Source: Zeus faber
Lineage: Eukaryota; Chordata; Actinopteri; Zeiformes; Zeidae
Length of the DNA stretch: 64,000 bases
Assembly (NCBI GenBank): GCA_960531495.1
Contig: CAUIJY010000071.1
Coordinates: forward strand, 1,178,001 to 1,242,000
Direction of reading: 5' to 3'
The notes below the pieces were generated by a model. It saw only the letters and a list, made by a program, of their open reading frames with translations, ran no database searches and was not told the DNA's origin. Within the stretch, counting starts at the first letter, position 1. Each line of letters begins with the position of its first letter. Positions 3,001-55,860 of this stretch are shown one piece after another. Position numbers and translations under genes: made by a program.

Positions 3001-3069
3001 TTTCTTTTAATCTTTCTTTCAATCTTTCACTCATTCCTTCCTTCAGTCTTTCAATCTTTCTTTCAATTT

Positions 3070-13739: not shown

Positions 13740-16700
13740 TATTTCTTTCAATCTTTCAATTTTTCTTTCATTCTTTCATTCTTTCTTGCAATCGTTATTT
13801 CATTCTTTCTTTCAATCTTTCAATCTTTCTTTAAATATTTCTTTCGATCTTTAATACTTTAAATCTTTCTTTCAAACATTCAATCTTTCTTTCAATCTTT
13901 CTATCATTCTTTCATTTTTTCTTTCAATCGTTCTTTCATTCTTTCTTTCAATCTTTCATTCTTTCTTTCAGTCTTTCAACCTTTCTTAAAATCTTTCTTT
14001 CATTCTTTCTTTCAAGCTTTCAGTCTTTCTTTCAATCTTTCTTTCAATCGTTCTTACTTTCAATCTTTCTTTCTTTCAATATTTCTTTCAATCTTTCAAT
14101 ATTTCTTTCTTACTTTCATTCTTTCTTACAATCTTTCTTTCATTCTTTCTTTCAATCTTTCTTTCAATATTTCTTACAATCTTTCTTTAATTCTTTCATT
14201 TTTTCTTTCAATCTTTCAATTATTCCTCCATTCTTTCTTTCAATCTTTATTACTTTCAATCTTTCTTTCAATCTTTTAATCTTTCAATCTCTCTTTCTTT
14301 CAATATTTCTTTCAATCTTTCATTCTTTCTTTCAGTCTTTCAATCTTTCTATAAATCTTTCTTTCAATCGTTCTTACTTTCAATCTTTCTTTCTTTCAGT
14401 ATTTCTTTCATTCTTTCATTCTTTCTTTCAATCTTTCATTCTTTCTTTCAATATTTCTTTCAATCTTTCTTTAATTCTTTCATTCTTTCTTTCAAACTTT
14501 CAATCTTTCTTTCATTCTTACTTTCAGTCTTTCAATTTTCGTTAAATCTTTCTTTCAATCTTTCTTTCAATCTTTCAATCTTTCAATCTTTCAATTTTTC
14601 TTTTATTCTTTCTTTCAATCTTTATTACTTTCAATCTTTCTTTCAATCTTTCTTACTTTCAAATTCTCTTTCTTTCAATATTTCTTTCAATCTTTCAATC
14701 TTTCTTTCAATCTTTCATTCTTTCTTTCAGTCTTTCAACCTTTCCTAAAATCTTTCTTTCAATATTTCATTCTTACTTCAAATCTTTCTTTCATTCTTTA
14801 TTTCAATCTACATTTCTTTCAATCATTCAATCTTTCTTTCAATACCGAACCATTGTCTCATCAAAGGTGAATGGTTCAGAATGCTGCAGTATATAATATG
14901 ATGATTAATATGATGAACTATTATGTGCTCCATAAGTGTTTCTCACAGAGTTTTAGGCCCATCTAACATGTATTTTTCGAGTTATGATCATTTTCAGACA
15001 GTCATTACTCTGTGTGACAGTGTCAGACAGTTTAAATACTATGATGAACAAGTATGTGCTGCTAAAGTGTTGCTTGTCAAACAGTTTTAGTCCCATACAG
15101 CATGTATTTGTCGAGTTATGATCATTTTCATCATAGTGTGCACATGTGGGAAAAAACAAATTTTCAACCGATTTAAACGTCGAAAAGGCGAATAGGTTAA
15201 ACGCTTCAGTCATTACTCTGTGTGACAGTGTCAGACAGTTTGAATACTATGACTAACTAGTCTGTGCTGCTAAAGTGTTGTTTGTCAAACAGTTTTAGTC
15301 CCATATAACATGTATTTGTGGAGTTACGATCATTTTCAGAACATTTGATCGTTTGCTGTCTAGCTGAATTAGAGAAACACCGAACCATTGTCTCTTCAGC
15401 GGTGAATGATTCAGAATGGTGCAGAACAGCATAGAAATTTGATTAATTTGATGAACTATTATGTGCTTCTTAAGTTTTTTCTCACAGAGTTCTAGAACCA
15501 TCTAACATGTATCTGTGGAGTTATGATCATTTTCAGAACTGTGGACGGTTTGCTGTCTAACTGAATTAGAGAAACACCGAACCATTGTCTCTTCAGAGGT
15601 GAATGATTCAGAATGCTGCAGTACAGCATAGAAATGTAATTAATATGATGAACTAGTCTGTGCTGCTAAAGTGTTGCTTGTCAAACAGTTTTAGTCCCAT
15701 ACAACATCTATTTGTCGAGTTATGAGCAGTTTCAGAACTTTGAACGGTTTGCTTTCTAGCTGAATTAGAGAAACACTGAACCATTGTCTCATCAATGGTG
15801 AATGGTTCAGAATGCTGCAGTACAGCATAGAAATTTGATTAATATGATGAACTATTATGTGGTCCATAAGTGTTTCTCACAGAGTTTTAAGCCCATCTAA
15901 CATGAATTTTTCGAGTTATGATAATTTTCAGAACTTTGGACGGTTTGCTGTCTAACTAAATTAGAGAAACACCGACCCATTGTCTCTTCAGAGGTGAATG
16001 ATTCAGAATGCTGCAGTACAGCATATGAATTTAATTAATGTGATGAACTTTTATGTGCTTCTTCAGTTTTTCTCACAGAGTTCTAGACCCATCTAACATG
16101 TATTTGTGGAGTTATGATCATTTTCAGAACTTTGGACGGTTTGCTGTCTAGCTGAATTGGAGAAACACCGAACCATTGTCTCTTCATAAGTGAATGATTC
16201 ACAATGCTACAGTACAGCATAGAAATTTGATTAATATGATGAACTATTATGAGCCCCATAAGTGTTTCTCACAGAGTTTTAGGCCCATCTAACATGTATT
16301 TTTCGAGTTATGATCATTTTCAGAACTTTGGACGGTTTGGTATCTAGCTGAATTAGAGAAACACCGAACCATTGTCTCTTCAGAGGTGAATGATTCAGAA
16401 TGCTGCAGTACAGCATAGAAATTTAATTAATATGATGAACTAGTCTGTGCTGCTAAAGTGTTGCTTGTCAAACAGTTTTAGTCCCATACAACATGTATTT
16501 GTCGAGTTATGAGCATTTTCAGAACTTTGAACGGTTTGCTGTCTAGCTGAATTAGAGAAACACCGAACCATTGTCTCTTCAGCGGTGAATGATTCAGAAT
16601 GCTGCAGTACAGCATAGAAATGTAATTAATATGATGAACTATTATGTCCTTCTTAAGTGTTTCTCACAGAGTTCTAGGCCCATCTAATATGTATTTGTTG

Positions 16701-17740
16701 AGTTATGATCATTTTCATCATAGTGTGCACATGTGGGAAAAAATGCGTTTTCAGCCGATTTAAATGTCGAAAAGGCGATTTGGTTTAAAGCTTCAGTCAT
16801 TACTCTGTGTGACAGTGTCAGACAGTTTAAATACAATGAATAACTAGTATGTGCTGCTAAAGTGTTGTATGTCAAACAGTTTTAGGCCCATTTAAAATGT
16901 ATTTGTCGAGGTTTGATCATTTTGATCATAGTGTGCACCTGTGGGAAAATACGCATTTTCAGCCGATTTAAACGTCGAAAAGGCGAATTGGTTAAACACT
17001 TCAGTCATTACTCTGTGTGACAGTGCCAGACAGTTTAAATACAATAGTGAACTAGTATATGCTGCTAAAGTGTTGTTTGTCAAACAGTTTTAGGCCCCAA
17101 TAAAATGTATTTGTCGAGTTATGATCATTTTCATCATAGTGTGCACATGTGGGAAAAAACGCATTTTCAGCCGATTTAAACGTCGAAAAGGCGAATTGGT
17201 TATAAGCTACAGTCATTACTCTGTGTGACAGTGACAGACAGTTTAAATACAATGATGAACTAGTATATGCTGCTAAAGTGTTGTTGGTCAAACAGTTTTA
17301 GGCCCATATAAAATGGATTTTTCGAGTTATGATCATTTTCAGAACTTTGGACGATTTGCGGTCTAGCTGGATTAGAGAAACACCGAACCTTTGTCTCTTT
17401 ATAGGTGAATGATTCAGAATGCTGCCGTACACCATTGAAATCTAATATGAGGAACTATTATGTGCTTCTTAAGTGTTTCTCACAGACCTCTAGGCCCATC
17501 TAACATGTATTTGTGGAGTTTTGATCACGTCAGAACTTTGGACGGTTTGCTGTCTAGCTGAATTAGAGAAACACTGAACCATTGTCTCATCAAAGGTGAA
17601 TGGTTCAGAATGCTGCAGTACAGCATAGAAATTTGATTAATATGATGAACTATTATGTGGTCCATAAGTGTTTCTCACAGAGTTTTAAGCCCATCTAACA
17701 TGAATTTTTCGAGTTATGATAATTTTCAGAACTTTGGACG
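13740..17740 (+). repeat. Left arm of giant inverted repeat (near-identical part)
   Basis: This interval pairs as reverse complement with about 51014-55860. Matched positions sum to 69571 around the satellite/tetranucleotide junction and to 68754 deeper in, because the right arm carries about 817 extra bases. Stretches compared by eye (14581-14900, 15690-15980, 16681-16920, 17350-17720) match base for base or with single differences, including rare words such as CCTAAAATC and TCAAATTCTC in the tetranucleotide part. Inward of about 17740 the arms belong to different satellite subfamilies. Outward of about 13740 block order differs. Confidence 0.92.
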
Positions 17741-18033
17741 GTTTGCTGTCTAACTGAATTAGAGAAACACCGACCCATTGTCTCTTCAGAGGTGAATGAT
17801 TCAGAATGCTGCAGTACAGCATAGAAATTAAATTAATATGATGAACTATTATGTGCTTCTTAAATGTTTCTCACAGATTTCTATGCCCATCTAACATGTA
17901 TTTGTGGAGTTATGATCATTTTCATCATAGTGTGCACATGTGGGAAAAAATGCATTTTCAGCCGATTTAAACGTCGAAAAAAGGCGAATTGGTTAAAAGC
18001 TACAGTCATTACTCTGTGTGACAGTGACAGATA
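14844..18033 (-). repeat. A/B dimeric satellite, minus orientation (left block)
   Basis: Tandem monomers of two related kinds. A (about 208 bases) carries the core TTCGACGTTTAAATCGGCTG followed by a T-run and a CACATGTG box. B (about 196 bases) carries GTTCGGTGTTTCTCTAATTC and CTGTACTGCAGCATTC. All copies here lie on the minus strand, opposite to every copy after 21681. Monomers differ more from one another than those at 22-36 kb, as expected for the edge of a satellite domain. A 280-base segment recurs within the block (about 15760-16035 and 17570-17850). Frames of 60-86 codons here mirror frames at 51.4-54.6 kb but are satellite by-products. The block ends inside an A monomer, where the 59/36-bp array begins. 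Confidence 0.93.
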
Positions 18034-21000
18034 GGAATTATGTAGGGTTTGGGATGTTTTTTGGTGTTGTATATTTTGACGTTCTTCGACCTAGTATTAT
18101 GTAGTTTTTGGGATATTTTTTGGCGTTGTATTTTTTGACGTTTTTCGACATAGTAATAAATTGTTTTTGGGATATTTCTGAGGGTTGTATATTTTGACGT
18201 TTTAGGGACATATTTTGGCGTTGTATATTTTGACGTTTTTCGACATAGTATTATGTAGTTTTTGGGATATTTTTTGGTGTTGTATATTTTGACTTTTTTC
18301 GACGTAACAAGTATGTCGTTCTTGGGATTTTTATCTGGGTTGTATATTTTGACGTCTTTGGACATATTTTGGCGTTGTATATTTTGACTTTTTTCGACGT
18401 AACAAGTATGTCGTTTTTGGAATATTTATCTGGGTTGTATACTTTGAAGTATTTGTGACATTTTTCGGCGTTGTATATTTTGACATTTTTCGACATAGTA
18501 TTCTCTAGTTTTTGGGATATTTTTCGGCGTTTTATATTTTGACGTTTTTCGACATGGTATTATGTCATTTTTGGGATATTTTTTGGCGTTGTATATATAG
18601 ACGTTTTTCGACATAGTGTAATAGGTCGTTTTTGGGATATTTTTTGGCCTTGTATATTTTGACTTTTTTTCGACTTTTTTTGGATGTCGTTTTTGGCTTA
18701 TTTATCTGAGTTGTATATTTTGAAGTATTTGTGATATTTTTCAGCGTTGTATATTTTTACGTTTTTTGACATAGTATTATGTAGTTTTTGGGATATTTAT
18801 CTGGGTTGTATATTTTGACGTTTTTCGATATAGTATTATGTCGATTTTGGGATATTTTTTGGCGTTGTATGTTTTGACTTTTTTCTACTTTTTCCGTATG
18901 TCGTTTTTGGGATATTTATCTGGGTTGTAAATTTTGAAGTATTTGTGATATTTTTCGGCATGGTATATTTTTTTACGTTTTTTGAAAATACCAAAAAATA
19001 TCCCAAAAACTACATAATACTATGGTATTATGTAGTTTTTGGGATATTTTTTGGTGTTGTGTATGTTGACTTTTTTCGACATAGTATATTATGTCCTTTT
19101 TTGGGATATTTATCTGGGTTGTATATTTTGACGTTTTTGGACATATTTTGGCGCTGTATATTTTGGCTTTTTTCGACATAGTTTAGTATGTCATTTTTGG
19201 AATATTTATCTGGGTTGTATATTTTTACGTTATTGTGATATTTTTCGACGTGGTATATTTTGACGTTTTTCGACATAGTATTATGCAGTTTTTGGGATAT
19301 TTTTTGGCGTTGTATATTTTGACGTTTTTCGACATGGTAATAAATCGTTTTTGGGATTTTTATCTGGGTTGTATATTTTGACGTTTTTGGGACATTTTTT
19401 GGCGCTGTATATTTTGACTTTTTTTGACAAATATAGTATGTCGTTTTTGGGATATTTTTCGGCGTTGTATATTTTGACGTTTTTCGGCATAGTATTATGT
19501 CATTTTTGGGATATTTATCTGGGTTGTAAAGTTTGACGTTTTTGGGACATATTTTGGCGTTGTATATTTTGACTTTTTTCGACATAGTATAATATGTAGT
19601 TTTTGGGATATTTTTCGGCATTTTATATTTTGATGTTTTTCGACATGGTATTATGTCATTTTTGGGATATTTTTTGGCGTTGTATATATAGAAGTTTTTT
19701 GACATAGTGTCGTACTTTGGGATACATATGACATACTGGTCGTTTTTGGGATATTTTTTGTTCTTGTATATTTGGACTTTTTTCGACATTTTTTGGATGT
19801 CGTTTTTGGATTATTTATCTGAGTTGTATATTTTGAAGTATTTGTGATATTTTTCAGCGTTGTATATTTTGACGTTTTTCGACATAGTATTATGTAGTTT
19901 TTGGGATATTTATCTGGGTTGTATATTTTGACGTTTTTCGATATAGTATTATGTCGTTTTTGGGATATTTTATGGCGTTGTATATTTTGACGTTTTTCGG
20001 CATAGTATTATGTCATTTTTGGGATATTTATCTGGGTTGTAAAGTTTGACGTTTTTGGGACATATTTTGGCGTTGTATATTTTGGCTTTTTTCGACATAG
20101 TTTAGTAAGTCATTTTTGGAATATTTATCTGGGTTGTATATTTTGAAGTTTTTGTGATATTTTTCGACGTGGTATATTTTGACGTTTTTCGACATAGTAT
20201 TATGTAGTTTTTGGGATAATTTTTGGCGTTGTATATTTTGACGTTTTTCGACATAGTAATATATCGTTTTTGGGATTTTTATCTGGGTTGTATATTTTGA
20301 CGTTTTTGGGACATTTTTTGGCGCTGTATATTTTGACTTTTTTCGACATAGTACATTATGTCGTTTTTTGGGATATTTATCTGGGTTGTATATTTTTACG
20401 TTATTGTGATATTTTTCGACGTGGTATATTTTGATGTTTTTCGACATAGTATTATGTAGTTTTTGGGATATTTTTTGGTGTTGTATATTTTGACTTTTTT
20501 TGACATAGTATAGTATGTCGTTTTTGGGATATTTTTCGGCGTTGTATATTTTGACGTTTTTCAGCATAGTATCATGTCATTTTTGGAATATTTATCTGGG
20601 TTGTAAATTTTGAAGTATTTGTGATATTTTTCGGCGTTGTATATTTTGACGTTTTTCGACAGAGTATTATGTAGTTTTTGGGATATTTTTTGGTGTTGTA
20701 TATTTTGACGTTCTTCGACATAGTATTATGTAGTTTTTGGGATATTTTTTGGCGTTGTATTTTTTGACGTTTTTCGACATAGTAATATATTGTTTTTGGG
20801 ATATTTATCTGGGTTGTATATTTTGACGTTTTTGGGACATATTTTGGCGTTGTATATTTTGACGTTTTTCGACATAGTATTATGTAGTTTTTGGGATATT
20901 TTTTGGTGTTGTATATTTTGCCTTTTTTCGACGTAACAAGTATGTCGTTCTTGGGATATTTATCTGGGTTGTATATTTTGACGTCTTTGGACATATTTTG

Positions 21001-21680
21001 GCATTGTATATTTTGACTTTTTTCGACGTAACAAGTATGTCGTTTTTGGAATATTTATCTGGGTTGTATATTTTTACGTTATTGTGATATTTTTCGACGT
21101 GGTATATTTTGACGTTTTTCAACATAGTATTATGTCGTTTTTGGGAAATTTTTTCGTGTTGTATATTTGGACGTTTTTTGACATAGTATTATGTCGTTTT
21201 TGGGATATTTCTCTGGGTTGTATATTTTGACGTTTTTGGGACATATTTGGCGTTGTATATTTTGACTTTTTCGACATAGTATAATGTAGTTTCTGGGATA
21301 TTTTTTGGCGTTGTATATGTTGACTTTTTTCGACATCGTATATTATGTCGTTTTTTGGGATATTTATCTGGGTTTTATATTTTTACGTTATTGTGATATT
21401 TTTCGATGTGGTATATTTTGATGTTGTTCGACATAGTATTATGTAGTGGTGGGATATTTTTTGGCGTTGTATATTTTGACGTTTTTCGACATAGTTTTAT
21501 ATCGTTTTTGGGATATTACCTGGGTTGTATATTTTGACGTTTTTGGGACATTTTTTGGCGTTGTGTATTTTGACGTTTTTCGACATTTTCCGTAAGTCGT
21601 TTTTGGGATATTTATCTGGGTTGTAAATTTTGAAGTATTTGTGATATTTTTCGGCGTTGTATATTTTGAAGTTTTTCGAC
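18034..21680 (+). repeat. 59-bp/36-bp AT-rich tandem array
   Basis: This array is unrelated to the flanking satellite. The long unit is 59 bases and reads through ATATTTTGACGTTTTTCGAC, then TATTATGTAG and TTTTTGGGATATTTTTTGGC. The short unit is 36 bases and equals the long unit without a 23-base internal segment (from CGACATAG to GTAGTTTTT). Long and short units mix irregularly, often with the variant GATATTTATCTGGGTTGTAT. All units run the same way except a short inverted patch at 18991-19020. Minus-strand frames up to 253 codons, rich in Lys, Tyr, Asn and Ile, cross it. They follow the repeat rather than any protein family and lack gene context. The array sits exactly where the A/B satellite changes orientation. 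No gene is visible. Confidence 0.92.
18991..19054. repeat. Perfect 30-bp inverted repeat (hairpin) in the 59/36-bp array
   Basis: Bases 18991-19020 are the exact reverse complement of 19025-19054, separated by the four bases TATG. The left arm is the only stretch of the array found in reverse orientation. A single strand could form a 30-bp stem with a 4-base loop. It looks like a local fold-back or small inversion within one long unit. Confidence 0.95.
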
Positions 21681-23318
21681 TCGACAAATACATGTTGTAT
21701 GGGACTAAAACTGTTTGACAAACAACGCTTTAGCAGCATATACTAGTTCACCATTGTATTTAAACTGTCTGACACTGTCACACAGAGTAATGACTGAAAC
21801 GTTTAACCAATTCCCCTTTTCGACGTTAAAATCGGCTGAAAATGCGTTTTTTCCCACATGTGCACACAATGATGAAAATGATCATAACTCCACAAATACA
21901 TGTTAGATGGGCCTAGAAATCTGTGAGAAACACTTAAGAAGCACATAATAGTTCATCATATTAATTAAATTTCTATGCTGTACTGCAGCATTCTGAATCA
22001 TTCACCTCTGAAGAGACAATGGTTCGGTGTTTCTCTAATTCAGCTAGACAGCAAACCGTCACAAGTTCTGAAAATGATCATAAATCCAGAAATACATGTT
22101 AGATGGGCATAGAAATCTGAGAGAAAAACTTAGGAAGCACATAATAGTTCATCATATTAATTAAATTTCTATGCTGTACTGCAGCATTCTGAATCATTCA
22201 CCTCTGAAGAGACAATTGTTCGGTGTTTCTCTAATTCAGCTAGACAGCAAACCGTCCAATGTTCTGAAAATGCTCATACCTCGTCAAATACATGTTGTAT
22301 GGGCCTAAAACTGTTTGACAAACAACGCTTTAGCAGCATATACTAGTTCACCATTGTATTTAAACTGTCTGACACTGTCACACAGAGTAATGACTGAAGC
22401 GTTTAACCAATTCCCCTTTTCGACGTTTAAATCGGCTGAAAATGCGTTTTTTCCCACATGTTCACACAATGATGAAAATAATCATACCTCGACAAATACA
22501 TGTTAGATGGGCCGAAAACTGTTTGACAAACAACACTTTAGCAGCATATACTAGTTCACCATTGTATTTAAACTGTCTGACACTGTCACACAGAGTAATG
22601 ACTGAAGCGTTTAACCAATTCCCCTTTTCGACGTTTAAATCGGCTGAAAATGCGTTTTTTCCCACATGTGCACACAATGATGAAAATGATCATAACTCCA
22701 CAAATACATGTTAGATGGGCCTAGAAATCTGTGAGAAACACTTAAGAAGCACATAATAGTTCATCATATTAATTAAATTTCTATGCTGTACTGCAGCATT
22801 CTGAATCATTCACCTCTGAAGAGACAATGGTTCGGTGTTTCTCTAATTCAGTTAGACAGCAAACCGTCACAAGTTCTGAAAATGATCATAACTCCAGAAA
22901 TACATGTAAGATGGGCATAGAAATCTGTGAGAAACACTTAAGAAGCACATAATAGTTCATCATATTAATTAAATTTCTATGCTGTACTGCAGCATTCTGA
23001 ATCATTCACCTCTGAAGAGACAATGGTTCGGTGTTTCTCTAATTCAGTTAGACAGCAAACCGTCACAAGTTCTGAAAATGATCATAACTCCAGAAATACA
23101 TGTTAGATGGGCATAGAAATCTGAGAGAAAAACTTAGGAAGCACATAATAGTTCATCATATTAATAAAATTTCTATGCTGTACTGCAGCATTCTGAATCA
23201 TTCACCTCTGAAGAGACAATGGTTCGGTGTTTCTCTAATTCAGCTAGACAGCAAACCGTCCAATGTTCTGAAAATGCTCATACCTCGACAAATACATGTT
23301 GTATGGGCCTAAAACTGT

Positions 23319-26300
23319 TTGACAAACAACGCTTTAGCAGCATATACTAGTTCACCATTGTATTTAAACTGTCTGACACTGTCACACAGAGTAATGACTG
23401 AAGCGTTTAACCAATTCCCCTTTTCGACGTTTAAATCGGCTGAAAATGCGTTTTTTCCCACATGTGCACACAATGATGAAAATAATCATAACTCGACAAA
23501 TACATGTTAGATGGGCCGAAAACTGTTTGACAAACAACACTTTAGCAGCATATACTAGTTCACCATTGTATTTAAACTGTCTGACACTGTCACACAGAGT
23601 AATGACTGAAGCGTTTAACCAATTCCCCTTTTCGACGTTTAAATCGGCTGAAAATGCGTTTTTTCCCACATGTGCACACAATGATGAAAATGATCATAAC
23701 TCCACAAATACATGTTAGATGGGCCTAGAAATCTGTGAGAAACACTTAAGAAGCACATAATAGTTCATCATATTAATTAAATTTCTATGCTGTACTGCAG
23801 CATTCTGAATCATTCACCTCTGAAGAGACAATGGTTCGGTGTTTCTCTAATTCAGTTAGACAGCAAACCGTCACAAGTTCTGAAAATGATCATAACTCCA
23901 GAAATACATGTTAGATGGGCATAGAAATCTGAGAGAAACACTTAAGAAGCACATAATAGTTCATCATATTAATTAAATTTCTATGCTGTACTGCAGCATT
24001 CTGAATCATTCACCTCTGAAGAGACAATGGTTCGGTGTTTCTCTAATTCAGTTAGACAGCAAACCGTCACAAGTTCTGAAAATGATCATAACTCCAGAAA
24101 TACATGTTAGATGGGCATAAAAATCTGAGAGAAAAACTTAGGAAGCACATAATAGTTCATCATATTAATAAAATTTCTATGCTGTACTGCAACATTCTGA
24201 ATCATTCACCTCTGAAGAGACAATGGTTCGGTGTTTCTCTAATTCAGCTAGACAGCAAACCGTCCAATGTTCTGAAAATGCTCATACCTCGACAAATACA
24301 TGTTGTATGGGCCTGAAACTGTTTGACAAAGAACGCTTTAGCAGCATATACTAGTTCACCATTGTAATTAAACTGTCTGACACTGTCACACAGAGTAATG
24401 ACTGAAGCGTTTAAGCAATTCCCCTTTTCGACGTTTAAATCGGCTGAAAATGCGTTTTTTCCCACATGTACACATAATGATGAAAATGATCATAACTCGA
24501 CAAATACATGTTAGATGGGCCTAAAACTGGTTGACAAACAACACTTTAGCAGCATATACTAGTTCACCATTGTATTTAAACTGTCTGACACTGTCACACA
24601 GAGTAATGACTGAAGCGTTTAACCAATTCCCCTTTTCGACGTTTAAATCGGCTGAAAATGCGTTTTTTCCCACATGTGCACACAATGATGAAAATGATCA
24701 TAACTCCACAAATACATGTTAGATGGGCCTAGAAATCTGTGAGAAACACTTAAGAAGCACATAATAGTTCATCATATTAATAAAATTTCTATGCTGTACT
24801 GCAGCATTCTGAATCATTCACCTCTGAAGAGACAATTGTTCGGTGTTTCTCTAATTCAGCTAGACAGCAAACCGTCCAATGTTCTGAAAATGCTCATACC
24901 TCGTCAAATACATGTTGTATGGGCCTAAAACTGTTTGACAAACAACGCTTTAGCAGCATATACTAGTTCACCATTGTATTTAAACTGTCTGACACTGTCA
25001 CACAGAGTAATGACTGAAGCGTTTAACCAATTCCCCTTTTCGACGTTTAAATCGGCTGAAAATGCGTTTTTTCCCACATGTGCACACAATGATGAAAATA
25101 ATCATAACTCGACAAATACATGTTAGATGGGCCTAAAACTGGTTGACAAACAACACTTTAGCAGCATATACTAGTTCACCATTGTATTTAAACTGTCTGA
25201 CACTGTCACACAGAGTAATGACTGAAGCGTTTAACCAATTCCCCTTTTCGACGTTTAAATCGGCTGAAAATGCGTTTTTTCCCACATGTGCACACAATGA
25301 TGAAAATGATCATAACTCCACAAATACATGTTAGATGGGCCTAGAAATCTGTGAGAAACACTTAAGAAGCACATAATAGTTCATCATATTAATTAAATTT
25401 CTATGCTGTACTGCAGCATTCTGAATCATTCACCTCTGAAGAGACAATGGTTCGGTGTTTCTCTAATTCAGTTAGACAGCAAACCGTCACAAGTTCTGAA
25501 AATGATCATAACTCCAGAAATACATGTTAGATGGGCATAGAAATCTGAGAGAAACACTTAAGAAGCACATAATAGTTCATCATATTAATTAAATTTCTAT
25601 GCTGTACTGCAGCATTCTGAATCATTCACCTCTGAAGAGACAATGGTTCGGTGTTTCTCTAATTCAGTTAGACAGCAAACCGTCACAAGTTCTGAAAATG
25701 ATCATAACTCCAGAAATACATGTTAGATGGGCATAAAAATCTGAGAGAAAAACTTAGGAAGCACATAATAGTTCATCATATTAATAAAATTTCTATGCTG
25801 TACTGCAACATTCTGAATCATTCACCTCTGAAGAGACAATGGTTCGGTGTTTCTCTAATTCAGCTAGACAGCAAACCGTCCAATGTTCTGAAAATGCTCA
25901 TACCTCGACAAATACATGTTGTATGGGCCTAAAACTGTTTGACAAACAACGCTTTAGCAGCATATACTAGTTCACCATTGTATTTAAACTGTCTGACACT
26001 GTCACACAGAGTAATGACTGAAGCGTTTAACCAATTCCCCTTTTCGACGTTTAAATCGGCTGAAAATGCGTTTTTTCCCACATGTGCACACAATGATGAA
26101 AATAATCATAACTCGACAAATACATGTTAGATGGGCCGAAAACTGTTTGACAAACAACACTTTAGCAGCATATACTAGTTCACCATTGTATTTAAACTGT
26201 CTGACACTGTCACACAGAGTAATGACTGAAGCGTTTAACCAATTCCCCTTTTCGACGTTTAAATCGGCTGAAAATGCGTTTTTTCCCACATGTGCACACA

Positions 26301-38969: not shown

Positions 38970-39680
38970 CCACGTGTAGACTTTGATGAAAATTATCAGA
39001 ACTCGAAAAATACATTTTATATGGGCCTAAAACTGTTTGACAAACAACACTTTAGCAGCACATACTAGTTGATCATTGTATTTAAACTGTCTGACACTGT
39101 CACATGGAGTAATGACTGAAGCGTTTAACCGTTCCACCAAATCGACGTTAAAATCGGCTGAAAATGCATTTTTTCCCACATGTGTAGACTTTGATGAAAA
39201 TTATCAGAACTCGAGAAATACATTTTATATGTGCCTAAAACTGGTTGACAAACAACACTTTAGCAGCAGATACTAGTTTATCATTGTATTTAAACTGTCT
39301 TTGAGAAAGACTTAAGAAGCAAAATAATTGTTCCTCATATTAATTAAAGTTATATGGTGTACTGCAGCATTCTGAATCATTCACCTACAAAGAGACAATG
39401 GTTCGGTGTTTCTCTAATTCAGGTAGACAGCAAATCGTCCAAAGTTCTGAAAATGATCATAACTCGAAAAATACATTTTATATGGGCCTAAAACTGTTTG
39501 ACAAACAACACTTTAGCAGCACATACTAGTTTATCATTGTATTTAAACTGTCTGACACTGTTACATAGAGTAATGACTGAAGCGTTTAACCGTTCCGCCA
39601 AATCGACGTTAAAATCGGCCGAAAATGCGTTTTTTCCCACGTGTAGACTTTGATGAAAATTATCAGAACTCGAAAAATAA

Positions 39681-39705
<25 letters not shown>
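39681..39705 (-). other. Poly(A) tail of the LINE (25 T on the + strand)
   Basis: An uninterrupted run of 25 T marks the 3' end of the minus-strand LINE and fixes its orientation. On the minus strand it follows ATATT, so an ATTAAA hexamer is formed partly by the tail. The tail abuts satellite sequence directly. Confidence 0.95.
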
Positions 39706-39711
<6 letters not shown>

Positions 39712-39809
39712 AAAATACAGAATCATCAACAGTAACAATTATGCCAAGAAAACATTTTTAAACACTTGGGAAATACATGTTTTCCCTTTTTTTCCCATTC
39801 TCTATCCTA
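39706..39809 (-). other. 3' UTR of the LINE
   Basis: About 104 AT-rich bases between the ORF2 stop and the A tail. I see no tandem repeat or tRNA-like structure. The short 3' UTR is where ORF2 would be expected to recognise its own RNA, but no specific stem-loop stands out by eye. Confidence 0.8.
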
Positions 39810-43604: not shown

Positions 43605-43641
43605 AAGAGTCACACTGAGAAGAGAGTATGATTTTCGACAT

Positions 43642-44910: not shown

Positions 44911-45115
44911 CGCACACCCGAAGAAAAAGGGTGGTTGGGGTGTGTGGGGGGGGGGACCCCCCACGCACTGAAAACAACCACTGCTGGAGGATCAGTCACA
45001 TAAAAATGAAAAAGATTCCGTAAAGACGTTCTGGAGTCCGGAAAAAACTCCCTTCCGTGTTCCACCCGCGGTGTTCCACTTCCTGGTGCTGTCGGATGCC
45101 AGTCGCGCATGCGCA
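44911..45115 (-). promoter_or_regulatory. LINE 5' leader with NRF1-like and ETS-like sites
   Basis: About 200 bases of GC-rich leader. At its very 5' end, 45104-45115 reads CGCGCATGCGCA, a full match to the NRF1 consensus YGCGCAYGCGCR; its last base may belong to the flanking satellite. Just inside are two GGAA cores on the minus strand, CCAGGAAGTGG (about 45079-45089) and CACGGAAGGGAG (about 45049-45060), which fit ETS-type sites. No TATA box is seen. NRF1 plus ETS sites near the start are typical of TATA-less animal promoters, so this is probably the internal promoter. That role is inferred from motifs only. Confidence 0.6.
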
Positions 45116-45116
45116 C

Positions 45117-46690
45117 TGGTTGACAAACAACACTTTAGCAGCACATACTAGTTTATCATTGTATTTAAACTGTCTGACACTGTCACATAGAGTAATGACT
45201 GAAGCGTTTAACCGTTCCACCAAATCGACGTTAAAATCGGCTGAAAATGCATTTTTTCCCACATGTGTAGACTTTGATGAAAATTATCAGAACTCGAAAA
45301 ATACATTTTATATGGGCCTAAAACTGGTTGACAGACAAGACATAAGCAGCACATACTAGTTCATCATTGTATTTAAATTGTCTTTGAGAAAGACTTAAGA
45401 AGCAAAATAATTGTTCCTCATATTAATTAAAGTTATATGGTGTACTGCAGCATTCTGAATCATTCACCTACAAAGAGACAATGGTTCGGTGTTTCTCTAA
45501 TTCAGCTCGACAGCAAATCGTCCAAAGTTCTGAAAATGATCATAACTCCACAAATACAAGTTAGATGGGCCTAGAACTCTGTGAGAAACACTTAAGAAGC
45601 ACATAATAGTTCATCATATTAATTAAATTTCTATGCTGTACTGCAGTATTCTGAATCATGCGCCTACAAAGAGACAATGGTTCGGTGTTTCTCTAATTCA
45701 GCTAGACAGCAAACGGTCCAAAGTTCGGAAAATGATCATAACTCGAAAAATACATTTTATATGGGCCTAAAACTGGTTGACAAACAAGACATTAGCAGCA
45801 CATACTAGTTCATCATTGTATTTAAACTGTCTTTGAGAAAGACTTAAGAAGCAAAATAATTTTTCCTCATATTAATTAAAGTTATATGGTGTACGGCAGC
45901 ATCCTGAATCATTCACCTACAAAGAGACAATGGTTCGGTGTCTCTCTAATTCAGCTCGACAGCAAATCGTCCAAAGTTCTGAAAATGATCATAACTCGAA
46001 AAATACATTTTATAAGTGCCTAAAACTGGCTGACAAACAACACTTTAGCAGCACATACTAGTTTATCATTGTATTTAAACTGTCTGACACTGTCACATAG
46101 AGTAATGACTGAAGCGTTTAACCGTTCCACCAAATCGACGTTAAAATCGGCTGAAAATGCATTTTTTCCCACATGTGTAGACTTTGATGAAAATTATCAG
46201 AACTCGAAAAATACATTTTATATGGGCCTAAAACTGGTTGACAGACAAGACATAAGCAGCACATACTAGTTCATCATTGTATTTAAACTGTCTTTGAGAA
46301 AGACTTAAGAAGCAAAATAATTGTTCCTCATATTAATTAAAGTTATATGGTGTACTGCAGCATTCTGAATCATTCACCTAAAAAGAGACAATGGTTCGGT
46401 GTTTCTCTAATTCAGCTCGACAGCAAATCGTCCAAAGTTCTGAAAATGATCATAACTCCACAAATACAAGTTAGATGGGCCTAGAACTCTGTGAGAAACA
46501 CTTAAGAAGCACATAATAGTTCATCATATTAATTAAATTTCTATGCTGTACTGCAGTATTCTGAATCATGCGCCTACAAAGAGACAATGGTTCGGTGTTT
46601 CTCTAATTCAGCTAGACAGCAAACGGTCCAAAGTTCGGAAAATGATCATAACTCGAAAAATACATTTTATATGGGCCTAAAACTGGTTGG
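45117..46690 (+). repeat. Duplicated satellite block, offset 910 bp
   Basis: About 45117-45780 recurs at about 46027-46690 with a constant offset of 910. Shared private variants include GACAGACAAGACATAAGCAG (near 45330 and 46240) and the B form with CATGCGCCTACAAAG. The first copy begins right at the LINE's 5' edge, so its original left end may have been removed or displaced by the insertion. Confidence 0.8.
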
Positions 46691-46864
46691 CAAACAACAC
46701 TTTAGCAGCACATACTAGTTTATCATTGTATTTAAACTGTCTGACACTGTCACATAGAGTAATGACTGAAGCGTTTAACCGTTCCACCAAATCGACGTTA
46801 AAATCGGCTTAAAATGCATTTTTTCCCACATGTGTAGACTTTGATGAAAATTATCAGAACTCGA

Positions 46865-49800
46865 AAAATACATTTTATATGGGCCTAAAACTGGTTGACA
46901 AACAAGACTTTAGCAGCACATACTAGTTTATCATTGTATTTAAACTGTCTTTGAGAAAGACTTAAGAAGCACATAATAGTTCCTCATATTCATTAAAGTT
47001 ATATGGTGTACTGCAGCATTCTAAATCATGCGCCTACAAAGAGACAATGGTTCGGTGTTTCTCTAATTCAGCTAGACAGCAAACGGTCCAAAGTTCGGAA
47101 AATGATCATAACTCGAAAAATACATTTTATATGGGCCTAAAACTGGTTGGCAAACAACACTTTAGCAGCACATACTAGTTTATCATTGTATTTACACTTT
47201 CTGACACTGTCACATAGAGTAATGACTGAAGCGTTCAACCGATTCGCCTTTTCGACGTTTAAATCGGCTGAAAATGCGTTTTTTCTCACGTGTAGACTTT
47301 GATGAAAATTATCAGAACTCGAAAAATACATTTTATTTGGGCCTAAAACTGGTTGACAAACAAGACTTTAGCAGCACATACTAGTTTATCATTGTATTTA
47401 AACTGTCTGACACTGTCACATAGAGTAATGACTGAAGTGTTTAACCGTTCCGCCAAATCGACGTTTAAATCGACTGAAAATGCGTTTTTTCCCACGTGTA
47501 GACTTTGATGAAAATTATCTGAACTCGAAAAATACATTTTATATGGGCCTAAAACTGGTTGACAAACAAGACTTTAGCAGCACATACTAGTTCATCATTG
47601 TATTTAAACTGACTGACACTGTCACATAGAGTAATGACTGAAGCGTTTAACCGTTCCGCCAAATCGACGTTTAAATCGACTGAAAATGCGTTTTTTCCCA
47701 CGTGTAGACTTTGATGAAAATTATTTGAACTCAAAAAATACATTTTATATGGGCCTAAAACTGGTTGACAAACAAGACTTTAGCAGCACATACTAGTTCA
47801 TCATTGTATTTAAACTGACTGACACTGTCACATAGAGTAATGACTGAAGCGTTTAACCGTTCCGCCAAATCGACGTTTAAATCGACTGAAAATGCGTTTT
47901 TTCCCACGTGTAGACATTGATGAAAATTATCATAACTCGAAAAATACATTTTATATGGGCCTAAAACTGGTTGACAAACAAGACTTTAGCTGCACATACT
48001 AGTTTATCATTGTATTTAAACTGTCTTTGAGAAAGACTTAAGAGGCACATAATTGTTCCTCATATTAATTAAAGTTATATGGTGTACTGCAGCATTCAAA
48101 ATCATGCACCTACAAAGAGACAATTGTTCGGTGTTTCTCTAATTCAGCTAGACAGTAAATCGTCCAAAGTTCTGAAAATGATCATAACTCGAAAAATACA
48201 TTTTATATGGACCTAAAACTGTTTGACAAACAACACTTTAGCAGCACATACTAGTTTATCATTGTATTTAAACTGTCTGACACTGTCACATAGAGTAATG
48301 ACTGAAGCGTTTAACCGTTCTACCAAATCGACGTTAAAATCAGCTGAAAATGCATTTTTTCCCACATGTGTAGACTTTGATGAAAATTATCAGAACTCGA
48401 AAAATACATTTTATATGGGCCTAAAACTGGTTGACAAACAAGACATAAGCAGCACATACTAGTTCATCATTGTATTTAAACTGTCTTCGAGAAAGACTTA
48501 AGAAGCAAAATAATTGTTCCTCATATTAATTAAAGTTATATGGTGTACTGCAGCATTCTGAATCATTCACCTACAAAGAGACAATGGTTCGGTGTTTCTC
48601 TAATTCAGCTCGACAGCAAATCGTCCAAAGTTCTGAAAATGATCATAACTCCACAAATACATGTTAGATAGGCCTAGAACTCTGTGAGAAACACTTAAGA
48701 AGCACATAATAGTTCATCATATTAATTAAATTTCTATGCTGTACTGCAGTATTCTGAATCATGCGCCTACAAAGAGACAATGGTTCGGTGTTTCTCTAAT
48801 TCAGCTAGACAGCAAACGGTCCAAAGTTCGGAAAATGATCATAACTCGAAAAATACATTTTATATGGGCCTAAAACTGGTTGGCAAACAACACATTAGCA
48901 GCACATACTAGTTTATCATTGTATTTACACTTTCTGACACTGTCACATAGAGTAATGACTGAAGCGTTCAACCGATTCGCCTTTTCGACGTTTAAATCAG
49001 CTGAAAATTGTTTTTCTCACGTGTAGACTTTGATGAAAATTATCAGAACTCGAAAAATACATTTTATTTGGGCCTAAAACTGGTTGACAAACAAGACTTA
49101 GCAGCACATACTAGTTTATCATTGTATTTAAACTGTCTGACACTGTCACATAGAGTAATGGCTGAAGCGTTCAACCGATTCGCCTTTTCGACGTTTAAAT
49201 CGACTGAAAATGCGTTTTTTCCCACATGTGTAGACTTTGATGAAAATTATCAGAACTCGAAAAATACATTTTATATGGGCCTAAAACTGGTTGACAAACA
49301 AGACTTTAGCAGCATATACTAGTTTATCATTGTATTTAAACTGTCTTTGAGAAAGACTTAAGAAGCACAAAATAGTTCCTCATATTCATTAAAGTTATAT
49401 GGTGTACTGCAGCATTCTAAATCATGCGCCTACAAAGAGACAATGGTTCGGTGTTTCTCTAATTCAGCTAGACAGCAAACGGTCCAAACTTCGGAAAATG
49501 ATCATAACTCGAAAAATACATTTTATATGGGCCTAAAACTGGTTGGCAAACAACACTTTAGCAGCACATACTAGTTTATCATTGTATTTACACTTTCTGA
49601 CACTGTCACATAGAGTAATGACTGAAGCGTTTAACCGTTCCGCCAAATCGACGTTTAAATCGACTGAAAATGCGTTTTTTCCCACGTGTAGACATTGATG
49701 AAAATTATCATAACTCGAAAAATACATTTTATATGGGCCTAAAACTGGTTGACAAACAAGACTTTAGCAGCACATACTAGTTTATCATTGTATTTAAACT

Positions 49801-51014
49801 GTCTTTGAGAAAGACTTAAGAAGCACATAATAGTTCCTCATATTCATTAAAGTTTTATGGTGTACTGCAGCATTCTAAATCATGCGCCTACAAAGAGACA
49901 ATGGTTCGGTGTTTCTCTAATTCAGCTAGACAGCAAACGGTCCAAAGTTCGGAAAATGATCATAACTCGAAAAATACATTTTATATGGGCCTAAAACTGG
50001 TTGGCAAACAACACTTTAGCAGCACATACTAGTTTATCATTGTATTTACACTTTCTGACACTGTCACATAGAGTAATGACTGAAGCGTTCAACCGATTCG
50101 CCTTTTCGACGTTTAAATCGGCTGAAAATACGTTTTTTCTCACGTGTAGACTTTGATGAAAATTATCAGAACTCGAAAAATACATTTTATTTGGGCCTAA
50201 AACTGGTTGACAAACAAGACTTTAGCAGCACATACTAGTTTATCATTGTATTTAAACTGTCTGACACTGTCACATAGAGTAATGACTGAAGTGTTTAACC
50301 GTTCCGCCAAATCGACGTTTAAATCGACTGAAAATGCGTTTTTTCCCACGTGTAGACTTTGATGAAAATTATCTGAACTCGAAAAATACATTTTATATGG
50401 GCCTAAAACTGGTTGACAAACAAGACTTTAGCAGCACATACTAGTTCATCATTGTATTTAAACTGACTGACACTGTCACATAGAGTAATGACTGAAGCGT
50501 TTAACCGTTCCGCCAAATCGACGTTTAAATCGACTGAAAATGCGTTTTTTCCCACGTGTAGACTTTGATGAAAATTATTTGAACTCAAAAAATACATTTT
50601 ATATGGGCCTAAAACTGGTTGACAAACAAGACTTTAGCAGCACATACTAGTTCATCATTGTATTTAAACTGACTGACACTGTCACATAGAGTAATGACTG
50701 AAGCGTTTAACCGTTCCGCCAAATCGACGTTTAAATCGACTGAAAATGCGTTTTTTCCCACGTGTAGACATTGATGAAAATTATCATAACTCGAAAAATA
50801 CATTTTATATGGGCCTAAAACTGGTTGACAAACAAGACTTTAGCTGCACATACTAGTTTATCATTGTATTTAAACTGTCTTTGAGAAAGACTTAAGAAGC
50901 ACATAATTGTTCCTCATATTAATTAAAGTTATATGGTGTACTGCAGCATTCAAAATCATGCACCTACAAAGAGACAATTGTTCGGTGTTTCTCTAATTCA
51001 GCTAGACAGCAAAT
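46865..51014 (+). repeat. Duplicated satellite blocks, offset 2854 bp, with four 206-bp A monomers in each
   Basis: About 46865-48160 recurs at about 49719-51014 with a constant offset of 2854. Each copy contains four A-type monomers spaced exactly 206 bases apart (47137, 47343, 47549, 47755 and 49991, 50197, 50403, 50609) with no B between them, an A-only run not seen on the left of the LINE. Copies differ by rare single bases. The second copy stops where the right arm of the giant inverted repeat begins. Confidence 0.85.
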
Positions 51015-54000
51015 CGTCCAAAGTTCTGAAAATTATCATAACTCGAAAAATTCATGTTAGATGGGCTTAAAACTCTGTGAGAAACACTTATGGACCACAT
51101 AATAGTTCATCATATTAATCAAATTTCTATGCTGTACTGCAGCATTCTGAACCATTCACCTTTGATGAGACAATGGTTCAGTGTTTCTCTAATTCAGCTA
51201 GACAGCAAACCGTCCAAAGTTCTGACGTGATCAAAACTCCACAAATACATGTTAGATGGCCTAGAGGTCTGTGAGAAACACTTAAGAAGCACATAATATT
51301 TCCCCATATTAGATTTCAATGGTGTACGGCAGCATTCTGAATCATTCACCTATAAAGAGACAAAGGTTCGGTGTTTCTCTAATCCAGCTAGACCGCAAAT
51401 CGTCCAAAGTTCTGAAAATGATCATAACTCGAAAAATCCATTTTATATGGGCCTAAAACTGTTTGACCAACAACACTTTAGCAGCATATACTAGTTCATC
51501 ATTGTATTTAAACTGTCTGTCACTGTCACACAGAGTAATGACTGTAGCTTATAACCAATTCGCCTTTTCGACGTTTAAATCGGCTGAAAATGCGTTTTTT
51601 CCCACATGTGCACACTATGATGAAAATGATCATAACTCGACAAATACATTTTATTGGGGCCTAAAACTGTTTGACAAACAACACTTTAGCAGCATATACT
51701 AGTTCACTATTGTATTTAAACTGTCTGGCACTGTCACACAGAGTAATGACTGAAGTGTTTAACCAATTCGCCTTTTCGACGTTTAAATCGGCTGAAAATG
51801 CGTATTTTCCCACAGGTGCACACTATGATCAAAATGATCAAACCTCGACAAATACATTTTAAATGGGCCTAAAACTGTTTGACATACAACACTTTAGCAG
51901 CACATACTAGTTATTCATTGTATTTAAACTGTCTGACACTGTCACACAGAGTAATGACTGAAGCTTTAAACCAAATCGCCTTTTCGACATTTAAATCGGC
52001 TGAAAACGCATTTTTTCCCACATGTGCACACTATGATGAAAATGATCATAACTCAACAAATACATATTAGATGGGCCTAGAACTCTGTGAGAAACACTTA
52101 AGAAGGACATAATAGTTCATCATATTAATTACATTTCTATGCTGTACTGCAGCATTCTGAATCATTCACCGCTGAAGAGACAATGGTTCGGTGTTTCTCT
52201 AATTCAGCTAGACAGCAAACCGTTCAAAGTTCTGAAAATGCTCATAACTCGACAAATACATGTTGTATGGGACTAAAACTGTTTGACAAGCAACACTTTA
52301 GCAGCACAGACTAGTTCATCATATTAATTAAATTTCTATGCTGTACTGCAGCATTCTGAATCATTCACCTCTGATGAGACAATGGTTCGGTGTTTCTCTA
52401 ATTCAGCTAGATACCAAACCGTCCAAAGTTCTGAAAATGATCATAACTCGAAAAATACATGTTAGATGGGCCTAAAACTCTGTGAGAAACACTTATGGGG
52501 CTCATAATAGTTCATCATATTAATCAAATTTCTATGCTGTACTGTAGCATTGTGAATCATTCACTTATGAAGAGACAATGGTTCGGTGTTTCTCCAATTC
52601 AGCTAGACAGCAAACCGTCCAAAGTTCTGAAAATGATCATAACTCCACAAATACATGTTAGATGGGTCTAGAACTCTGTGAGAAAAACTGAAGAAGCACA
52701 TAAAAGTTCATCACATTAATTAAATTCATATGCTGTACTGCAGCATTCTGAATCATTCACCTCTGAAGAGACAATGGTTCGGTGTTTCTCTAATTCAGCT
52801 AGACAGCAAACCGTCCCAAGTTCTGAAAATGCTCATAGCTCGACAAATACATGTTAGATGGGCCTAAAACTCTGTGAGAAACACTTATGGAGCACATAAT
52901 AGTTCATCATATTGATCAAATTGATCAAATTTCTATGCTGTACTGCACCATTCTGAACCATTCACCTCTGAAGAGACAATGGTTCGGTGTTTCTCTAATT
53001 CAGCTAGACAGCAAACCGTCCAAAGTTCTGAAAATGCTCATAACTCTACAAATACATGTTGTATGGGACTAAAACTGTTTGACAAACAACACTTTAGCAG
53101 CACATACTTGTTCATCATAGTATTTAAACTGTCTGACACTGTCACACAGAGTAATGACTGAAGCGTTTAACCAATTCGCCTTTTCGACGTTTAAATCGGC
53201 TGAAAATGCGTTTTTTCCCACATGTGCACACTATGATGAAAATGATCATAACTCGACAAATACATTTTATATGGGCCTAAAACTGTTTGACATACAACAC
53301 TTTAGCAGCTTATACTAGTTCATCATTGTATTTAAACTGTCTGACACTGCCACCGAGAGTAATGACTGAAGCTTTTAACCAATTCGCCTTTTCGACGTTT
53401 AAATCGGCTGAAAATGCATTTTTCCCCACATGTGCACACTATGATGAAAATTATCATAACTCCACAAAAAAATGTTAGATGGGTCTAGAAGTCTGTGAGA
53501 AACACTTAAGAAGCACATAATAGTTCATCATATTAATTAAATTTCTATGCTGTACTGCAGCATTCTGAATCATTCACCTCTGAAGAGACAATGGGTCGGT
53601 GTTTCTCTAATTTAGTTAGACAGCAAACCGTCCAAAGTTCTGAAAATTATCATAACTCGAAAAATTCATGTTAGATGGGCTTAAAACTCTGTGAGAAACA
53701 CTTATGGACCACATAATAGTTCATCATATTAATCAAATTTCTATGCTGTACTGCAGCATTCTGAACCATTCACCATTGATGAGACAATGGTTCAGTGTTT
53801 CTCTAATTCAGCTAGAAAGCAAACCGTTCAAAGTTCTGAAACTGCTCATAACTCGACAAATAGATGTTGTATGGGACTAAAACTGTTTGACAAGCAACAC
53901 TTTAGCAGCACAGACTAGTTCATCATATTAATTACATTTCTATGCTGTACTGCAGCATTCTGAATCATTCACCTCTGAAGAGACAATGGTTCGGTGTTTC

Positions 54001-55860
54001 TCTAATTCAGTTAGACAGCAAACCGTCCACAGTTCTGAAAATGATCATAACTCCACAGATACATGTTAGATGGTTCTAGAACTCTGTGAGAAAAAACTTA
54101 AGAAGCACATAATAGTTCATCAAATTAATCAAATTTCTATGCTGTTCTGCACCATTCTGAATCATTCACCGCTGAAGAGACAATGGTTCGGTGTTTCTCT
54201 AATTCAGCTAGACAGCAAACGATCAAATGTTCTGAAAATGATCGTAACTCCACAAATACATGTTATATGGGACTAAAACTGTTTGACAAACAACACTTTA
54301 GCAGCACAGACTAGTTAGTCAAAGTATTCAAACTGTCTGACACTGTCACACAGAGTAATGACTGAAGCGTTTAACCTATTCGCCTTTTCGACGTTTAAAT
54401 CGGTTGAAAATTTGTTTTTTCCCACATGTGCACACTATGATGAAAATGATCATAACTCGACAAATACATGTTGTATGGGACTAAAACTGTTTGACAAGCA
54501 ACACTTTAGCAGCACATACTTGTTCATCATAGTATTTAAACTGTCTGACACTGTCACACAGAGTAATGACTGTCTGAAAATGATCATAACTCGAAAAATA
54601 CATGTTAGATGGGCCTAAAACTCTGTGAGAAACACTTATGGAGCACATAATAGTTCATCATATTAATCATCATATTATGTACTGCAGCATTCTGAACCAT
54701 TCACCTTTGATGAGACAATGGTTCGGTATTGAAAGAAAGATTGAATGATTGAAAGAAATGTAGATTGAAATAAAGAATGAAAGAAAGATTTGAAGTAAGA
54801 ATGAAATATTGAAAGAAAGATTTTAGGAAAGGTTGAAAGACTGAAAGAAAGAATGAAAGATTGAAAGAAAGATTGAAAGATTGAAAGAAATATTGAAAGA
54901 AAGAGAATTTGAAAGTAAGAAAGATTGAAAGAAAGATTGAAAGTAATAAAGATTGAAAGAAAGAATAAAAGAAAAATTGAAAGATTGAAAGATTGAAAGA
55001 TTGAAAGAAAGATTGAAAGAAAGATTTAACGAAAATTGAAAGACTGAAAGTAAGAATGAAAGAAAGATTGAAAGTTTGAAAGAAAGAATGAAAGAATTAA
55101 AGAAAGATTGAAAGAAATATTGAAAGAAAGAATGAAAGATTGAAAGAAAGAATGAAAGAATGAAAGAAATACTGAAAGAAAGAAAGATTGAAAGTAAGAA
55201 CGATTGAAAGAAAGATTTATAGAAAGATTGAAAGACTGAAAGAAAGAATGAAAGATTGAAAGAAATATTGAAAGAAAGAGAGATTGAAAGATTAAAAGAT
55301 TGAAAGAAAGATTGAAAGTAATAAAGATTGAAAGAAAGAATGGAGGAATAATTGAAAGATTGAAAGAAAAAATGAAAGAATTAAAGAAAGATTGTAAGAA
55401 ATATTGAAAGAAAGATTGAAAGAAAGAATGAAAGAAAGATTGTAAGAAAGAATGAAAGTAAGAAAGAAATATTGAAAGATTGAAAGAAATATTGAAAGAA
55501 AGAAAGATTGAAAGTAAGAACGATTGAAAGAAAGATTGAAAGAAAGACTGAAAGCTTGAAAGAAAGAATGAAAGAAAGATTTTAAGAAAGGTTGAAAGAC
55601 TGAAAGAAAGAATGAAAGATTGAAAGAAAGAATGAAAGAACGATTGAAAGAAAAAATGAAAGAATGATAGAAAGATTGAAAGATTGAAAGAAAGATTGAA
55701 TGTTTGAAAGAAAGATTTAAAGTATTAAAGATCGAAAGAAATATTTAAAGAAAGATTGAAAGATTGAAAGAAAGAATGAAATAACGATTGCAAGAAAGAA
55801 TGAAAGAAAAATTGAAAGATTGAAAGAAATATTGAAAGAAAGAGAGATTGAAAGATTGAA
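51014..55860 (-). repeat. Right arm of giant inverted repeat (near-identical part)
   Basis: Reverse-complement partner of about 13740-17740. It crosses the satellite/tetranucleotide junction at 54727/54728 exactly as the left arm does at 14843/14844. Relative to the left arm it holds about 817 additional bases, roughly 52770-53590, made of whole satellite monomers. A few substitutions (for example ACATAATATG against ATATAATATG near the junction) and an 8-base difference in the simple part near 55690 show the arms are not copies of one read. Confidence 0.92.

What the first reader, a model, noticed from the sequence alone, without database searches (positions are those of the whole stretch)
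13740..55860. Giant inverted repeat spanning tetranucleotide arrays and satellite
The window reads array, satellite, centre, satellite, array, with the outer parts in opposite orientation. About 4 kb on each side of the two junctions matches nearly base for base as reverse complement, around a ~33-kb unpaired centre. Near-identity in fast-evolving satellite DNA implies a recent inverted duplication or ongoing gene conversion between the arms. Large palindromes of this kind are known from sex chromosomes and amplified regions, but this one is made entirely of repeats.
Basis: partly seen in the sequence, partly recalled or inferred. Interest (0 to 1): 0.75.

Follow-up and report, generated by a model that had tools for sequence, protein, structure and literature searches.

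The report
Orientation flip in shared mega-repeat
The mirror-image DNA is real, but it looks like one place where a huge repeat shared by many chromosomes turns round, rather than a palindrome kept identical by its own two arms.

Summary
The inverted repeat is real and sharply bounded: 13714-17741 matches the reverse complement of 51014-55857 with 7 substitutions in 4019 aligned bases and one 817-base gap. It extends beyond the window: a 24.5-kb block (X) 37-43 kb outside on each side is also inverted, at 99.75%. The window lies in an unplaced 2.4-Mb contig (C78) of an unnamed 803-Mb genome. Its parts recur at 95-100% identity on 22 other contigs, mostly near one end of long contigs. Arm identity is therefore largely a family-wide property: the left arm's 817-base deletion is shared only with a same-direction copy 322 kb away (2 of 38 scored), so the arms are not sister copies. 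What is special is the satellite-satellite join at 51015-51033: in register, inside 19 identical bases, and found once in the assembly (40 of 1182 candidates scored). There unit polarity flips; on other long contigs polarity is as expected in 112 of 121 markers, with flips on a few. Most likely an ectopic exchange between opposite satellite arms; an assembly chimera is the main rival. Reads are needed.

The parts
1..14843 (-). M array: degenerate tetranucleotide/12-bp array, CTTT-rich on the + strand
   Evidence: continues outside the window to about C78:1135501
13714..17741 (.). Left near-exact arm (end of the microsatellite plus most of the short satellite arm)
   Evidence: 7 substitutions in 4019 aligned bases against the right arm
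14844..18036 (-). S satellite, short arm, 16 monomers, mostly of types A (about 196 bp) and B (about 208 bp)
18037..21675 (+). satB (Q): second satellite, 59/95-bp units, between the two S orientations; 34 listed matches at 95-100% to 801 bases of it, the window included
21676..38527 (+). S satellite, long arm, A and B monomers in higher-order units such as AAABB (1004 bp) and ABB
38528..51014 (+). S satellite subfamily 2 (mostly 206-208-bp B and 252-254-bp B/A chimeric monomers), interrupted by the LINE
39681..45116 (-). L1-like LINE (Tx1 clade recalled, not tested) inserted in subfamily 2; about 21 bp of target missing by eye; a C4 copy lies in the same satellite context
39810..43613 (-). 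LINE ORF2, 1267 aa as listed, endonuclease and reverse transcriptase
43642..44964 (-). LINE ORF1, 440 aa as listed, CCHC zinc knuckle
51015..51033 (.). Switch interval: 19 bases identical to both parent satellite types; left of it subfamily 2, right of it short-arm type; one 100% match to the junction in the assembly
51014..55857 (.). Right near-exact arm, reverse complement of the left arm
52778..53594 (+). 817 bp (four monomers) present in the right arm; the left arm and C78:1516092 share the deletion joint
54728..64000 (+). M array: GAAA-rich on the + strand, reverse orientation of the left array
   Evidence: continues to about C78:1278500
6988..8741 (.). Outer microsatellite block, inverted partner 62174-63919, 20 substitutions in 1733 aligned bases

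Best explanation
The window holds a polarity switch inside a mega-repeat that is shared, almost unchanged, by many chromosomes of this genome and that probably lies at their centromeric or short-arm ends. A unit reads: M array, short S arm, satB, long S arm in the opposite direction (with a LINE), block X. Because the unit carries S in both directions around satB, the long S arm of one unit can pair with the short S arm of a unit lying the other way. An in-register exchange between such arms, within 19 identical bases at 51015-51033, joined a forward unit to a reversed unit. The flanks are mirror images because both are ordinary members of one homogenised family. SHOWN: the arms, their boundaries, the copies elsewhere, the polarity bias, the register of the join and its single match in the assembly. 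INFERRED: that the join was made by homologous recombination or template switching, that different chromosomes exchange DNA here, and that the domain is pericentromeric.
For: Arm junction: 40 of 40 scored copies at 99-100%, window arms included. satB: 34 listed matches at 95-100%, window included. satB/S-plus boundary: 40 of 40 scored at 96-100%, full length; the S-minus/satB side was checked on C4 (99%). Block X: 40 of 40 scored at 100% after rounding. Polarity: 112 of 121 markers on 15 long contigs point the way expected from the contig end on which they lie, and 27 of 28 rows on long contigs. In the 15 long contigs whose ends were sampled, telomeric repeats were seen at the end opposite the domain in seven, and in C1 near its start, and no telomeric array in the last 300 bases at the domain end. 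Breakpoint query 50780-51260: 100% only at the window, next best 92%. Join in register with a 19-base identical interval. On C4 two sampled copies run from the long S arm or its LINE to block X without a flip. The left arm's 817-base deletion is shared only with C78:1516092, in direct orientation, 2 of 38 scored.
Against: The join has one match and lies in an unplaced contig, so no second assembled locus supports it. C78 has 4 polarity flips in 11 adjacent marker pairs against 5 in 122 elsewhere (Fisher p = 0.003), which is also what a badly joined contig would show. The one other flip resolved to the base (C4:370496) lies in X, not in S, and joins unlike positions, so the S-arm mechanism is not general. 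In the inner arm, the right arm's best match is the left arm by a small margin. Only the best 33-40 of hundreds to thousands of candidates were scored in each genome search.
Confidence: 0.62

Rival explanations
1. Assembly chimera: two pieces of the mega-repeat from different places were joined tail to tail at about 51015-51033.
For: The junction has a single match. C78 is unusually rich in flips. C66, C78 and C140 have lengths that are exact multiples of 1000, which suggests cutting during scaffolding. 11 of 15 sampled long contigs end inside the domain, so assembly often stops here.
Against: Overlap assemblers (general knowledge) join at long near-identical overlaps, whereas this join uses 19 bases between monomers about 85% alike. 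Flips also occur on C4, C10, C13, C22 and, in the list, on C20 and C149. A second island in C78 also passes from S plus at 1.530 Mb to M plus at 1.539 Mb.
Confidence: 0.25
2. A true palindrome of recent origin kept identical by gene conversion between its own arms.
For: 99.8% identity over 4 kb and 99.75% over a 24.4-kb alignment around block X. The right arm's inner part has the left arm as best match.
Against: Other copies are as close or closer for the arm junction and for the sampled part of X. The 817-base deletion groups the left arm with a direct copy 322 kb away. Of 7 substitutions between the arms, 2 look derived on the left, 4 on the right, 1 is unresolved, so nothing marks ongoing conversion.
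Confidence: 0.07
3. A two-sided pericentromere: C78 spans the middle of a fused or metacentric chromosome, with mirror-image flanks meeting near the window.
For: Left of the window the polarity is that of domains at right-hand contig ends, right of it that of left-hand ends.
Against: C78 flips three more times, one of them after the sister island near 1.52 Mb. No centromere marker was tested.
Confidence: 0.06

Closest known systems
Satellite macro-dyad symmetries of Tribolium beetles (PMC13081366, abstract and passages seen)
   Same: Satellite arrays change direction within multi-kilobase blocks and form mirror structures of up to tens of kilobases in putative pericentromeric regions, with conserved inversion sites (here the satB boundary).
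   Different: Here the mirror also includes microsatellite arrays and a 24.5-kb complex block, and the window's own switch has a single match rather than being conserved. The authors state that such symmetries had been documented only in Tribolium; this genome carries TTAGGG telomeric repeats.
Human acrocentric short-arm pseudo-homologous regions around SST1 (PMC10172130, passages seen)
   Same: Domains shared at over 99% by heterologous chromosomes, in one orientation on some and inverted on another; proposed to recombine and, when inverted, to yield Robertsonian fusions.
   Different: Here at least 15 long contigs share the domain, and polarity also changes within single contigs. No population data exist here.
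Ape sex-chromosome palindromes (PMC11168930, passages seen)
   Same: Long inverted arms of 98% identity or more with a spacer.
   Different: Those are screened for under 80% repetitive content and explained by conversion between arms; here the arms are repeats found on many contigs.
Mouse telocentric/TLC satellites with a 5'-truncated L1 (PMC10880262, passages seen; shared polarity recalled from Kalitsis 2006, not read)
   Same: Satellites plus a LINE at the centromeric ends of one-armed chromosomes.
   Different: Different sequences and scale; here the window's LINE copy has two open frames and polarity flips occur.

Membership tests
Ape-type ampliconic palindrome (criteria in PMC11168930) | Arms at least 8 kb and 98% identical, spacer at most 500 kb | tested here: met
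   24,396-column alignment at 99.75%, about 143 kb between the two X blocks
Ape-type ampliconic palindrome (criteria in PMC11168930) | Less than 80% repetitive content | tested here: not met
   About 79% of the 117.7-kb left side is M or S tandem array, and X itself has 40 of 40 scored near-identical copies
Ape-type ampliconic palindrome (criteria in PMC11168930) | Arms homogenised with each other by gene conversion | tested here: not met
   Other copies as close or closer; the inner right arm is an exception by 4 bits
Tribolium-type satellite macro-dyad | Satellite subarrays of several kb in opposite orientation | tested here: met
   S minus 3.2 kb, S plus about 27.6 kb without the LINE, around satB
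Tribolium-type satellite macro-dyad | Conserved inversion site | tested here: inconclusive
   satB/S-plus boundary full length in 40 of 40 scored copies, the other side of satB checked only on C4; the window's switch at 51015-51033 is not conserved
Tribolium-type satellite macro-dyad | Location in megabase pericentromeric regions | tested here: inconclusive
   Domain near one end of long contigs, with telomeric repeats seen at the other end in 8; no centromere marker tested
Heterologous acrocentric exchange region (human PHR type) | Shared at over 99% between heterologous chromosomes | tested here: met
   taking long contigs as chromosomes
Heterologous acrocentric exchange region (human PHR type) | Recombination shown in populations or pedigrees | not testable with these tools
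   one assembly only

The most novel reading that the evidence does not exclude
The S/satB/S module carried by the unit is a built-in inverted repeat that lets the centromeric ends of different chromosomes recombine in both polarities, so that it both spreads the mega-repeat among chromosomes and produces head-to-head joins of the kind that could seed Robertsonian or isochromosome formation. The window would be one such join caught at base resolution, with perhaps another in the same contig.
Probability: 0.2. Interest if true: 0.75.

Novelty: new member of a known kind. Interest (0 to 1): 0.5.

Why it matters
A near-identical repeat with a strong polarity on at least 15 long contigs, and rare flips whose breakpoints can be read to the base, would allow a concrete test of how different chromosomes exchange their centromeric ends and how inverted joins arise. 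It also warns that arm identity in a satellite palindrome says little about arm-to-arm conversion until copies elsewhere in the genome are compared.

Tried and rejected
Chance similarity of simple repeats: rejected, 0 windows at 97% or more in each of 18 simulated array pairs against 13 of 53 observed outside the core. One locus assembled twice: not favoured, because of the 817-base difference and different nearest relatives. Older arms with a recent conversion tract: I first read the outer block that way (20 of 1733 substitutions against 7 of 4019 in the core, Fisher p = 3e-6; 7 of 1031 for its second left copy, p = 0.013) and dropped it once other copies were seen. Perfect hairpin at C4 near 374.5 kb: guessed from samples, refuted; the switch is at C4:370496. 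First monomer tiling failed for a too strict anchor and was replaced. Satellite patterns in viral and prokaryote collections gave no match; the LINE query in the viral collection gave one pattern hit that was not confirmed. Rfam: no match at gathering scores. Papers: 10 of 10 searches used; beyond the four papers of Closest known systems, and PMC13427858 of which one reference-list passage was seen, only search listings with opening lines of abstracts were seen.
Full report
OBSERVATION. The window reads M array (minus), S satellite (minus), satB, S satellite (plus) with a LINE, S satellite (plus), M array (plus). Left 13714-17741 and right 51014-55857 are reverse complements with 7 substitutions in 4019 aligned bases, two 8-base, one 1-base and one 817-base indel. 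Identity drops abruptly at both ends. Simulated arrays did not give the further matches seen between the two microsatellite arrays (13 of 53 windows at 97% or more, against 0 in each of 18 simulated pairs).

THE WIDER LOCUS. The window is C78:1178001-1242000 of an unnamed 803.5-Mb genome in 153 contigs. In 100 kb on each side the mirror goes on: left, M minus for 57.5 kb in all, block X 24.5 kb, M minus; right, M plus for 46 kb, X, M plus 27 kb, part of a second X (500-base bins). The two inner X blocks with 2 kb of outer flank match inverted over 24,396 columns at 99.75% (24 mismatches, 37 gap columns). Of the left 117,741 bases, 113,588 lie in inverted blocks seeded by exact 60-mers, with gaps of up to 250 bases bridged, that have partners on the right; this is not counted one to one.

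NOT ARM-SPECIFIC. The microsatellite/satellite junction of the left arm has 40 of 40 scored copies at 99-100% (2194 candidates); six on C17 and C11 score 1472 bits, the right arm 1468, like seven others. A 901-base part of the left block X is identical to C78:1428027 in direct orientation (1626 bits); the right-hand block scores 1621, as do 19 other copies (40 of 306 candidates scored). The left arm's 817-base deletion joint is matched at 100% in 2 of 38 scored copies, the window and C78:1516092, both in the same direction; the rest reach at most 96% (2201 candidates). That island also shares the sampled satB and satB/S sequence almost exactly (1441 against 1445 bits). Result the other way: for 51040-52440 the right arm's best match is the left arm (2507 bits), then C78:1516706 (2503), C13 (2494), C4 (2489) (33 of 2989 candidates scored). 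On balance the arms are members of one family, with a close C78/C13 subgroup, not a private pair.

POLARITY AND PLACE. Copies at 95% or more were seen on 22 contigs besides C78. Taking junction, X, satB and LINE matches listed (154 markers), 112 of 121 on 15 long contigs have the direction expected from the contig end on which they lie; exceptions are on C4 (4), C13 (3), C10 (1) and C22 (1). C10's length was not fetched; its end was inferred from position. The later satB/S list adds 27 of 28 as expected on long contigs, the exception on C20, and one reversed copy on the short contig C149. Both ends of 15 long contigs (25-66 Mb) were sampled, mostly 300 bases each. Telomeric repeats were seen at the end opposite the domain in seven (C3, C4, C7, C15, C17, C20, C22), and in C1 some 2.5 kb inside its start; seven showed none at either sampled end. 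No domain end showed a telomeric array (C17's first 300 bases hold four CCCTAA). 11 of the 15 end inside the domain. This fits pericentromeric or short-arm heterochromatin of one-armed chromosomes; no centromere marker was tested. C78 itself has 4 flips in 11 adjacent pairs against 5 in 122 elsewhere in the markers.

THE SWITCH. The change of S direction at satB is part of the unit: the satB/S-plus boundary is full length in 40 of 40 scored copies (1096 candidates), and the S-minus/satB side was matched at 99% on C4. The second change, from long S arm to reversed short S arm, lies at 51015-51033: sites from 50952 to 51014 follow subfamily 2 (one, 51010, the other way), sites from 51034 follow the short arm, and the 19 bases between fit both; monomer register is kept. 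A query across it matches at 100% only here; next best 92% (40 of 1182 candidates scored). On C4 one copy runs from the S arm and a broken LINE into an X stub, and another, sampled every 8 kb, passes from S plus to X plus, both without a flip. In C78 the sister island of the left arm passes from S plus (1.530 Mb) to M plus (1.539 Mb), with no junction copy listed there; its outer left side was not sampled. The C4 flip at 370496 joins X to reversed X at unlike positions. So flips recur, by more than one kind of join.

MECHANISM. I favour an ectopic exchange or template switch between the long S arm of one unit and the short S arm of a unit lying the other way, in register and within 19 identical bases. 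Shown: the sequence on both sides, the register, the single match. Inferred: the event itself, and exchange between chromosomes. The main rival is an assembly chimera, which only reads can exclude.

LINE. ORF1 (440 aa) and ORF2 (1267 aa) are open, with zinc knuckle, endonuclease and reverse transcriptase; the best solved relatives of ORF2 are L1 ORF2 proteins. Tx1-clade membership is recalled, not tested. A 917-base 5' part has 40 of 40 scored copies at 100% after rounding (239 candidates), and a C4 copy sits in the same satellite context, so it probably spread as a passenger of the unit.

On holding the report against the calls I corrected the distance of block X from the window, the scope of the satB boundary claim, the telomere counts, and added the flips on C20 and C149.

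Noticed in passing
39681-45116: L1-like LINE with both frames open, inserted in satellite with about 21 bp of target missing by eye; 40 of 40 scored copies of its 5' 917 bases are identical after rounding.
   Followed up: partly
18990-19055: A 66-bp inverted repeat (97%) inside satB, as if a short piece had been copied backwards.
   Followed up: no
3069-4420 and 6689-8040: Very recent tandem duplication in the left microsatellite array (1 substitution in 1352 bases, spacing 3620).
   Followed up: partly
C78:1111001-1135500 (L016-L018): Block X, 24.5 kb; 40 of 40 scored copies of a 901-base part are identical after rounding. By eye it holds retrovirus-like coding pieces, not analysed.
   Followed up: no
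L062 (C4:39001-39400): A block X stub joined directly to the inside of the LINE at about C4:39229.
   Followed up: partly
C66, C78, C140: Contig lengths 925000, 2401000 and 2017000 are exact thousands, suggesting cuts made during scaffolding.
   Followed up: no
C19:27.62-28.61 Mb: 22 full-length matches at 91-92% to window 50780-51260, 21 of them in one orientation: a large relative of the satellite.
   Followed up: no
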